Origin: Tubulanus polymorphus
Taxonomy: Eukaryota; Nemertea; Palaeonemertea; Tubulaniformes; Tubulanidae
Length of the DNA: 64,000 bases
NCBI RefSeq assembly: GCF_964204645.1
Contig: NC_134026.1
Span: 30,442,650 to 30,506,649 of the forward strand
Direction of reading: 5' to 3'
The translations under genes were made by a program, and so were the position numbers. Under the pieces are notes generated by a model, which worked only from the letters and a program-made list of their open reading frames with translations, searched no databases and was not told the origin of the DNA. Positions 51,301-53,751 of the stretch are shown here, piece by piece; positions within the stretch are counted from its first letter, which is position 1, and each line of letters starts with the position of its first letter.

Positions 51301-53751
51301 GTACTGTGTATTTACAGGCTTCCATCTAAGTGGTATAGTATCAGAACCGGCCAATCCTATCTATTCTCTACCAGAACGACATTATAAAGTATCAATTAGT
51401 TTTGACAGGTAAGTCTCTTATTGATAATCAGCTGCAACACTCCCTCAGTTATCTATCTAGGCTACAAGTTTTATTAAAACGATATTAGATTGTTAAACAC
51501 TGAAGTAGTTTTCGATATTAAATCATTCAGTTAGAGAAGTGTAATTCTCTTGTGTCAATGTAACTGTTTACTTATATAGATGTTTGATATGAAACCTTGC
51601 ACATAATTGTTTATGAAGGGATGGTGGTTTCTGACAGTCACTGGTGCAAGCTGACAGTCACTGGCGAAGCCTGGCAGTCTCTTGTGCTGCCTGACAGTCT
51701 CTGGTGCAAGCTGACAGACTCTGGTGCGAGCTGACAGTCACTGGCAAAGCCTGGCAGTCTCTTGTGCTACTTGACAGTCTCTGGTGCAGGCTGAACAGTC
51801 ACTGGCGAAGCCTGGCAGTCTCTTGTGCTACTTGACAGTCTCTGGTGCAGGCTGAACAGTCACTGGCGAAGCCTGGCAGTCTCTAGTTCTGCTTGACAGA
51901 TTGGTGCAGGCTGAACAGTCACTGGTACAGGTTGACAGTCTGGTGTCATGTGTGAATCAGGATTGTCTGATATGGAACGGCATATCTCATGAGATTTAGA
52001 AATCTAACCAATGTAGGGGCTTTCGAGCAGAAAATTACCTTTGTTGTTTACCGTCAATTTCAGTGCCTTAAATAATGATAATACGACAGCTAGTTCATTG
52101 AGACGGCTGAGATTAAAACCATGAACATTGTTAGTTAGATATAGCGGGTCTAGTGTAGAGCGTGATAGCACGTACCCTACACGCTGTCATCCTCTATTTC
52201 ACTAATGCGTCTTTGTTTTCTATAATGTTGTGGATATGAGAGTAATTTGTCTGGTTCTTTACGATGTCATTAAGTTGTCGTAGTTTACCTTTATCCAACA
52301 ACACGCATTCGACCGCGCTATACATCGTCTAGTTCAGCACAGTTTGTACTTCCTCATTCATCGGAAGCTCCTATTTCTAATTATTTTCAAGCACCTTGAA
52401 TGATATTGAGAAATCATTTTTAAACGCGATTGGTAGAACACTATATCCGTGTTGAAGCGATGAGGAGAGAATCCCACAATGATAATAAAAAGTCCGAAAA
52501 TGAAACTTCGAGATAGTAGTTTATTTCAACGTTTCGACTATATCCTAATAGTCATCTTCAGGAATAATAGTCACCTTCATTATTCCTGAAGATTACTATT
52601 AGGATATAGTCGAAACGTTGAAATAAACTACTATCTCGAAGTTTCATTTTCGGACTTTTTATTATCATTGCGGGATTCTCTCCTAATTTTTAAACCTTTG
52701 AAACTCAATGAATTTTTGGAAAGACTTAAGTAATTTTTCAAATGTCAATTTTATGTATTTCTATTGTATAACAAACAGAAACTGTTGTAATCAGTAAGGT
52801 AAAACCCCCTTACATTTGACCCAGTGCACGAGACACGTCTTTGTGTGAAGATAATAGCACTCTAATTAATTGGTCTTACCGATAGCTGTGCATTTTCTTA
52901 TAACATCTTATGAGAAAACTAGATATTATCATAAATTGATGTCAACCTTTACGAATCCTGGTGGCATCGGGACTCGACGCCACTGTGCAAAATCCTGCTT
53001 CTGATAAGGCTGAATTTAAAAATTTGGGACGGATTTAATAGTACCCACCCTCATTCAAGCTGATTTCACGATAAGTCATACTGTTTTAATGACATGAATC
53101 GATTGTTTTATTTTGTAGGTGTAAAATAACGTCTGTAAAATGCGCGTGTGGAAACAAAGATATATTTTGGTGCCAACACGTGGTCGCGTTATCTTTATAT
53201 CGCATACGAAAACCAAAACATGTACAGCTAAGAGTGCCAATATCAGGTAAAATAAGGTTCATTAGCACGGCCTACTTTTTGGAATCAATGTCATCACTGG
53301 TTACAACTTAAAAGTTTCGAAATTTAAAGTAGTCGTTTCTTTCAAAATGAATTTTGAATTTGATTTCAATTTGATTTTCTTATTTCATACTTTAAATAAT
53401 CGATTTAGAAAAAAATGTCAGGAACTCGCCTGGATTCAGGACGCCGGATTCAGGGCGCTGGATTCAGGATGCTGGATTCAGGATGTCGGATTCAGGTCGC
53501 TGGATTCAGGACACTGGTTTCAGCTTCATACTGACTGCTACAAACCTTGATTAATGATAGGAGGAATTGAAGAATTTACTCGAATTTGAATTTAAATCTG
53601 TTTTCAGAAACGTTGCTGCAAATGAGTCGAGAACAGTTGCAGAAGTTTGCGCAGTACATGATCGCTGAACACCACACAGATGTCCTACCTACCGCTCAAA
53701 AACTCGCTGATGAGATATTACAGGCTACATCTACCATCAATAAACTAGCTG
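48305..53751 (+). CDS. Zinc finger SWIM-domain protein (ZSWIM4/5/6 type), 3' end outside window
   Basis: SWIM-domain proteins of this group act with cullin-RING ligases or in neuronal development. Four exons: 48305-48674, 51318-51408, 53119-53246, 53608-53751, coding 244 residues and ending in phase 1. Start chosen as [11 protein letters not shown], like the vertebrate N-terminus; an in-frame ATG at 48260 would add 15 residues. Seen: [40 protein letters not shown], then [12 protein letters not shown], and a SWIM zinc knuckle [13 protein letters not shown] (Cys162, Cys164, Cys172, His174) followed by [20 protein letters not shown]. Exon 4 has [19 protein letters not shown] and [12 protein letters not shown]. 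The following intron exceeds 10 kb, and I found no further exon before the window ends. The vertebrate paralogue cannot be chosen. Confidence 0.93.
48675..51317 (+). other. ZSWIM intron 1
   Basis: 2.6 kb, no coding exon seen. Contains a 12-G run (48923-48934), a CT-rich stretch (50547-50580) and the repeat at 50815-51045. Confidence 0.7.
50815..51045 (+). repeat. dispersed intronic repeat, copy 2
   Basis: Same family as 480-655, but with additional 5' sequence (GGATCCAGGGAAAAATCGCG onward). Intronic stretches at 5910-6060 and 47080-47270 also share a phrase of the type GAAAACTCAGGGAATT and may belong to a related repeat. Confidence 0.6.
51630..51945 (+). repeat. minisatellite, about 28-bp unit arranged as 57-bp dimers
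   Basis: Units CTGACAGTCTCTGGTGCAAG and CTGGCAGTCTCTTGTGCT alternate, about 11 monomers. A related short cluster lies at 56255-56358. Confidence 0.85.
52463..52684. mobile_element. 222-bp near-perfect palindrome carrying two opposed hammerhead-like motifs
   Basis: Arms 52463-52568 and 52579-52684 (106 nt each) are reverse complements with about two mismatches, separated by 10 nt. Each arm carries CTGAAGA, one T, a 6-bp stem of the GACTAT/ATAGTC type, then GAAACGTTGAAATAAA, one motif on each strand. The family is the one at 36658-36894, with a relic at 60905-60960. It sits in ZSWIM intron 2. Confidence 0.85.
53430..53517 (+). repeat. short tandem repeat, 15-17-bp unit
   Basis: CTGGATTCAGGA-type units, about six copies, in ZSWIM intron 3. 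Confidence 0.85.

What the first reader, a model, noticed from the sequence alone, without database searches (positions are those of the whole stretch)
52463..52684. Near-perfect 222-bp palindrome holding two opposed hammerhead-like ribozyme cores
Seen: 106-nt arms with about two mismatches around a 10-nt spacer, each arm with CTGAAGA, a 6-bp hairpin and GAAA. Known: Penelope-like elements and animal retrozymes carry minimal hammerheads with the order CUGANGA-stem II-GAAA. Inference: this is a head-to-head dimer of a non-autonomous ribozyme-bearing retroelement inside a gene intron. Every copy carries one extra U after CUGANGA, so it may be a variant core or inactive. In the ZSWIM pre-mRNA the palindrome would fold into long dsRNA.
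Basis: partly seen in the sequence, partly recalled or inferred. Interest (0 to 1): 0.62.

Follow-up and report, generated by a model that had tools for sequence, protein, structure and literature searches.

The report
Inverted Penelope retroelement copy with ribozymes
The palindrome is one of some 2,900 places in this animal genome where a Penelope-like jumping gene left copies of its RNA start, here two head to head, each with a hammerhead-type ribozyme motif; the kind is known, but the regularity of the copies tells how the element inserts.

Summary
The palindrome is real: arms 52460-52568 and 52579-52687, 97% complementary, 10-nt spacer. It is one insertion of a Penelope-like element (PLE), flanked by a 10-bp target duplication (52416-52425 / 52686-52695), with a 34-nt 'tail' on the left arm only. 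Full-length 2.86-kb tandem relatives in the same genome encode reverse transcriptase plus GIY-YIG endonuclease, so this is a truncated copy of an autonomous PLE, not a retrozyme. The arms are its pseudo-LTRs. The hammerhead reading holds as a fold: stems I and II covary among PLE families, and 151 of 151 cores carry the extra U. Rfam hammerhead models do not recognise it; activity is untested. Across 51 palindromic copies one arm ends near +109 and the other near +146 (50/50 scorable), with 9-15-bp target duplications. Inner ends peak at +1, a TATA/Inr-type start at the ribozyme's first base, not at the predicted cleavage site (+42). Paired arms share private variants yet differ independently in length. 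Best model: both target strands prime on one PLE RNA at two adjacent sites, each cDNA runs towards the RNA's 5' end, and the ends are joined. Known kind; useful detail on an unsettled mechanism.

The parts
52416..52425 (.). left target-site duplication ATTTTTAAAC
   Evidence: 48 of 51 palindromic copies have duplications of 9-15 bp, control 1.4% at >=8 bp
52426..52459 (-). 34-nt PLE 'tail' (unit +110 to about +143), holding the AC-rich hairpin AACAC-GGATATA-GTGTT; present on this arm only
   Evidence: tail described in PMC3846280 and PMC11167929
52460..52568 (-). left arm: pLTR, unit +109 to +1, long (L) arm
52522..52567 (-). hammerhead-type motif of left arm, consensus sequence; predicted cut between 52528 and 52527 (after ACGTT)
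   Evidence: cleavage itself not tested
52569..52578 (.). 10-nt junction filler; with flanking bases, 52566-52579 is a 13/14 copy of 52547-52560 (AATAGTCAYCTTCA), so probably a template-jump or templated end-joining product
52579..52687 (+). right arm: pLTR, unit +1 to +109, short (S) arm without tail; the last two bases overlap the right duplication
52580..52625 (+). hammerhead-type motif of right arm; 52594 G to T breaks the first pair of stem II; predicted cut between 52619 and 52620
52686..52695 (.). right target-site duplication ATTTTTAAAC

Best explanation
A single retrotransposition of a Penelope-like element. Shown: a family of tandem 2.86-kb RT plus GIY-YIG units; the palindrome made of two pLTR copies; the target duplication; the strict long/short arm rule; inner ends clustered at +1; covariation of the hammerhead stems. 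Inferred: the RNA starts at +1 (TATA at about -31, Inr-like TCA), so the hammerhead occupies the first ~47 nt of the transcript. The RT-endonuclease, possibly a dimer, nicks both target strands 9-15 bp apart. The strands prime reverse transcription at two adjacent sites flanking an AC-rich hairpin (about +109 and about +146), one site per strand, on the same RNA or on RNAs from one source locus. Each cDNA runs towards the RNA 5' end and many reach +1. The two cDNA ends are then joined with filler, giving the head-to-head palindrome. Templates are not cut at the hammerhead. In the host intron this copy would form a ~109-bp RNA hairpin and is most likely neutral.
For: About 2,930 cores within 3 mismatches; tandem units and 833-aa ORF; Pfam RVT_1 and GIY-YIG above cut-off; two further PLE families with related ORFs. 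Outer ends bimodal and 50/50 scorable pairs one long and one short; target duplications 9-15 bp in 48/51 against 1.4% control; the same rule in 9 family C pairs and 3 family B pairs. Inner ends: 46/102 arms at -2..+3, 1/102 at 40-44. TATA-like box at about -30 to -32 of TCA(+1) in three families. Paired arms share 18 private variants, 0.41 expected, yet their inner ends are uncorrelated (rho -0.10, p 0.48). The short arm reaches further in 27 pairs, the long arm in 9, p 0.004. Biochemistry of the Anolis PLE PAc agrees: both strands cut and extended, RT starting at two adjacent internal sites bounding the tail in an AC-rich stem loop, hammerhead mutants still inserting (PMC11167929).
Against: No RNA data: the transcription start is inferred from motifs and copy ends. 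Shared private variants are also what self-priming (fold-back) of one cDNA would give. The PAc assay saw no difference of start site between the strands, whereas genomic copies show one of each. 56 of 102 inner ends lie outside the +1 window (37 stop short, 19 read through), so run-off at +1 is the commonest but not the only outcome. The sample is from conserved, probably young copies on few contigs.
Confidence: 0.66

Rival explanations
1. The palindrome arises by self-priming: one cDNA (or antisense template) folds back at its end and copies itself, as proposed for rotifer Penelope elements.
For: Paired arms share private variants; proposed in PMC3846280.
Against: Fold-back gives no reason for the strict +109/+146 outer ends, or for both arms stopping at +1 with 7-43 nt of filler between them (12 pairs have both ends at +1, 11 of them with filler, about the number expected if arms are independent).
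Confidence: 0.2
2. A distinct non-autonomous ribozyme element (animal retrozyme type) that spreads as circular RNA and inserted as a dimer.
For: Short, ribozyme-bearing, multi-copy.
Against: Same sequence is the pLTR of coding PLE units; arms continue into ORF 3' sequence in many copies; minimal, not canonical, hammerhead; no 170-400-nt tandem arrays seen in the sampled loci; copy ends do not fall at the cleavage site.
Confidence: 0.03
3. A foldback DNA transposon (MITE) with long inverted repeats.
For: Long inverted repeat with target duplication.
Against: The two outer ends are not inverted copies of each other (one has the tail, one does not, 50/50), spacers and inner ends vary per copy, duplications vary from 9 to 15 bp, and coding relatives are RT plus GIY-YIG.
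Confidence: 0.02
4. The hammerhead resemblance is incidental; stem II is only a conserved promoter or protein-binding hairpin. This concerns the motif, and is compatible with the insertion mechanism above.
For: No Rfam hammerhead hit (the genome-wide searches rang in no control either); extra U in the core; stem III only ACGU without a loop.
Against: C3-U-G-A-N-G-A and GAAACGUU are invariant across families while stems I and II covary (44 double changes against 13.4 in shuffles, slid controls 6-16); hammerheads are reported in all available PLE sequences (PMC6155905), and that of PAc cleaves with protein (PMC11167929). The search pattern itself fixed part of the core, so invariance there is partly by construction; the covariation is not.
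Confidence: 0.12

Closest known systems
Penelope/Poseidon-clade PLEs, especially PAc (Poseidon_Ac, Anolis carolinensis; PMC11167929)
   Same: RT plus GIY-YIG ORF, tandem pLTRs, minimal hammerhead at the pLTR, tail between two adjacent RT start sites, AC-rich stem loop
   Different: In PAc the ORF ATG is at the start of stem II; here that ATG frame closes after five codons (ATG ACT ATT AGG ATA TAG) and the first in-frame Met of the long ORF lies just past the tail. A palindromic class with strict long/short arms is quantified here.
Adineta vaga Penelope families (PMC3846280)
   Same: Inverted pLTR, 31-bp tail optionally on one of the inverted pLTRs, 8-10-bp target duplications, palindromes at inverted junctions, TATA/Inr in the pLTR
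   Different: Low copy number there; no hammerhead mentioned in that paper; here ~2,900 cores allow boundary statistics, which fit two-strand priming better than self-priming.
Animal retrozymes (PMC7229834)
   Same: Type I hammerheads in small mobile repeats of animals
   Different: Retrozymes are 170-400-nt non-coding tandem repeats with canonical hammerheads and circular RNAs; this is a PLE pLTR with a minimal hammerhead.
CChMVd plus-strand hammerhead (De la Pena and Flores 2001, cited in PMC6155905 and PMC3705267; the paper itself not read)
   Same: An extra nucleotide in the catalytic core
   Different: Extra A in the viroid; extra U between A9 and stem II here, conserved in 151 of 151 cores.

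Membership tests
Penelope-like elements | Reverse transcriptase domain in a single ORF | tested here: met
   RVT_1 5.8e-10, 39.7 bits against cut-off 29.6, in the full-length relative L051; YVDD motif. The window copy itself has no ORF.
Penelope-like elements | C-terminal GIY-YIG endonuclease | tested here: met
   GIY-YIG 26.3 bits against cut-off 22.6, residues 689-723 of 801
Penelope-like elements | pLTRs by tandem or partial-tandem arrangement, with inverted pLTR copies | tested here: met
   2,857-2,863-bp spacing of tandem pLTRs, inverted copies
Penelope-like elements | 30-40-nt tail on one of the inverted pLTRs | tested here: met
   34 nt in the window; 50/50 scorable pairs
Penelope-like elements | Short target-site duplication of variable length | tested here: met
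   10 bp here; 9-15 bp in 48 of 51
Penelope-like elements | RT groups with PLE/telomerase RTs in a tree | not tested
   No eukaryotic PLE reference set was at hand; assignment rests on domain pair and architecture
Hammerhead ribozyme, type I minimal (PLE kind) | CUGANGA and GAAA core around stem II | tested here: met
   2,285 exact matches of the extended pattern, 0 for the reversed control
Hammerhead ribozyme, type I minimal (PLE kind) | Stems I and II supported by covariation | tested here: met
   89.6% of cells paired, 3 of 4 stem I pairs and 5 of 6 stem II pairs with changes on both sides
Hammerhead ribozyme, type I minimal (PLE kind) | Recognised by Rfam hammerhead models | tested here: not met
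   No hit up to E 5 or E 10; genome-wide runs had no positive control
Hammerhead ribozyme, type I minimal (PLE kind) | Self-cleavage at N-U-H | not testable with these tools
   GUU followed by G at +41/+42 predicted; needs an assay
Animal retrozyme | Non-coding 170-400-nt tandem repeats with canonical type I hammerhead | tested here: not met
   pLTR of coding PLE units; no such tandem arrays in the sampled loci

The most novel reading that the evidence does not exclude
PLE insertion is an obligately asymmetric two-strand reaction: one target strand always primes at the near site and the other at the far side of the AC-rich hairpin of the same RNA, both cDNAs run towards a cap site placed exactly on the first base of a 5'-terminal hammerhead whose core carries a fixed extra U, and the cDNA ends are joined. 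The ribozyme is thus bypassed in insertion and may serve to release or decap read-through RNAs.
Probability: 0.45. Interest if true: 0.55.

Novelty: new member of a known kind. Interest (0 to 1): 0.37.

Why it matters
[quoted passage not shown] A genome with thousands of similar copies lets insertion products be read statistically. The strict long/short rule, the shared variants and the +1 ends are concrete predictions that a purified PLE protein can be tested against. For the host gene the insertion looks ordinary, though a 109-bp RNA hairpin in an intron could feed editing or small RNAs.

Tried and rejected
Rfam scans of the region and window at two thresholds, of five loci at E 10 and genome-wide hammerhead searches: no hammerhead; the hairpins gave microRNA-precursor matches, all below the gathering score. 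PDB sequence search with the ORF: no hit. IMG/VR scan for relatives: none, as expected for an animal element. The 2014 paper on PLE hammerheads is not held, so the extra U could not be compared with its alignments. Fold-back, retrozyme and MITE readings considered and ranked lower. Cleavage by the hammerhead as the source of copy ends: rejected, 1 of 102 inner ends within 40-44. Pfam scan of the two flanking exon-like ORFs: no family, so the ZSWIM reading rests on my recognition of the sequence. The host species was not identified.

Full report
What was checked. The palindrome is present as described: 109-nt arms with three mismatches around a 10-nt spacer, each arm with CTGAAGA-T-hairpin-GAAACG. 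As RNA it forms one long hairpin, -177.4 kcal/mol, z = -27. The arm is a genomic repeat: 60 scored matches in the first search and about 2,930 places with the 32-nt core within three mismatches, none for the reversed control pattern.

What it belongs to. Some cores recur every 2,857-2,863 bp. Three such loci were fetched. They are tandem units with a stop-to-stop ORF of 833 aa, which scores above the Pfam cut-offs for reverse transcriptase and GIY-YIG endonuclease. That pair in one ORF, with tandem pseudo-LTRs, is the mark of canonical Penelope-like elements (PMC11167929). The window arms are the pLTR, unit positions +1 to +109.

One insertion, not two. A duplication ATTTTTAAAC lies directly outside the arms, 52416-52425 and 52686-52695, so both arms came in together. 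The left arm alone continues for 34 nt beyond +109. This is the tail described for Penelope elements, optionally on one of the inverted pLTRs (PMC3846280).

Rule across copies. Among 51 non-redundant head-to-head pairs, 50 could be classed and all 50 had one arm ending near +109 (S) and the other near +146 (L). Target duplications were 9-15 bp in 48 of 51, against 1.4% of mismatched flank pairs at 8 bp or more. Two other PLE families in the same genome, B and C, with diverged ORFs, follow the rule in all pairs scorable for both outer ends: nine of C (L057, L061, L064, L069, L151, L152, L157, L158, L159) and three of B (L137, L139, L146). Inner ends: 46 of 102 arms stop within -2..+3; 19 continue into the upstream ORF end and 37 stop short. 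Only one lies in 40-44, where hammerhead-cut templates would end (+42). The S arm reaches further in 27 pairs and the L arm in 9 (p 0.004), so the S-primed strand may be made first (inference).

Same template, independent extension. Arms of a pair share 18 non-majority variants where random pairing gives 0.41, so both came from one RNA or one source locus, or one was copied from the other. Yet their inner ends are uncorrelated, and 11 of the 12 pairs in which both arms stop at +1 carry 7-43 nt of filler between them. In the window the filler, with its flanks, repeats 52547-52560 with one change, as a template jump or templated end joining would leave it. Independent ends plus filler fit two cDNAs joined at their ends better than fold-back.

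Where the RNA starts. In families A, B and C a TATA-like box lies about 30-32 nt before an A in a TCA initiator-like context, and this A is the +1 at which copies end. The hammerhead begins at +1/+2. Hence the transcript probably begins on the ribozyme. This is inference from motifs and ends; no RNA data were available.

The hammerhead. Across 16 distinct cores from several families, stem I (3 of 4 pairs) and stem II (5 of 6) show changes on both sides: 44 cells against 13.4 in shuffles and 6-16 in slid controls. The flanking CUGANGA and GAAACGUUG are constant, partly because the search pattern required them. The rows come from a few families, so the number of independent events is smaller than the cell count. 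A U sits between A9 and stem II in all 151 distinct cores with a good stem II, although the pattern used there left that base free, and no core had the stem directly on A9. Stem III is ACGU without a loop, consistent with the minimal hammerheads lacking helix III reported for PLEs (PMC6155905). Rfam models do not see it. [quoted passage not shown] All this agrees with templates that are not cut at the hammerhead.

Mechanism proposed. PLE protein binds its RNA near the AC-rich hairpin of the tail (one search shows AACAC-GGATATA-GTGTT), nicks both target strands, and each strand primes at one of the two sites beside the hairpin. PAc was shown to cut and extend both strands and to start at two adjacent sites that bound the tail. 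Each cDNA runs towards the RNA 5' end, and joining yields the palindrome and the target duplication. Longer, coding copies arise when the primed pLTR is a downstream one in a tandem or read-through RNA (inference from read-through arms).

Context. The insertion lies between exon-like ORFs at 48257-48682 and 53571-53774 on the + strand that I read as ZSWIM-like; Pfam has no family for them. No other match to families A, B or C is in the window; a relic core of family D type lies at 36755 (-). The copy's right-arm hammerhead has a broken first stem II pair, and either core would be locked in the 109-bp duplex, so I expect no ribozyme action from this locus.

Verdict. Ordinary in kind, a PLE copy with inverted pLTRs. 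The added value is the quantified rule for its insertion products.

Noticed in passing
window 36755-36786 (-): A single relic core of another PLE family (CTGACGATGATCTGTAGGGTGAGATCGAAACA), family D type.
   Followed up: partly
window 20101-20160 (-): tRNA-like match, 31.8 bits, overlapping a 59-bp tandem duplication 20019-20150; possibly a tRNA-derived SINE or a tRNA fragment.
   Followed up: no
window 53766-54359; 51631-51941; 28084-28975; 58247-58621; 61628-63139: Several tandem arrays of 20-29-bp and CT-rich units, two of them flanking the palindrome within about 1.1 kb.
   Followed up: no
L115 (282-394 -, 422-462 -, 467-618 +); L138; L054: Junctions with extra short same-strand copies of the first 33-40 nt of the pLTR before the inversion, as if the reverse transcriptase jumped back and restarted near the RNA 5' end.
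   Followed up: partly
L084, L052, L053: A family A subgroup has GAATAA instead of GAAATA after the predicted cut, which makes stem I a perfect 6-bp helix (TTATTC/GAATAA).
   Followed up: partly
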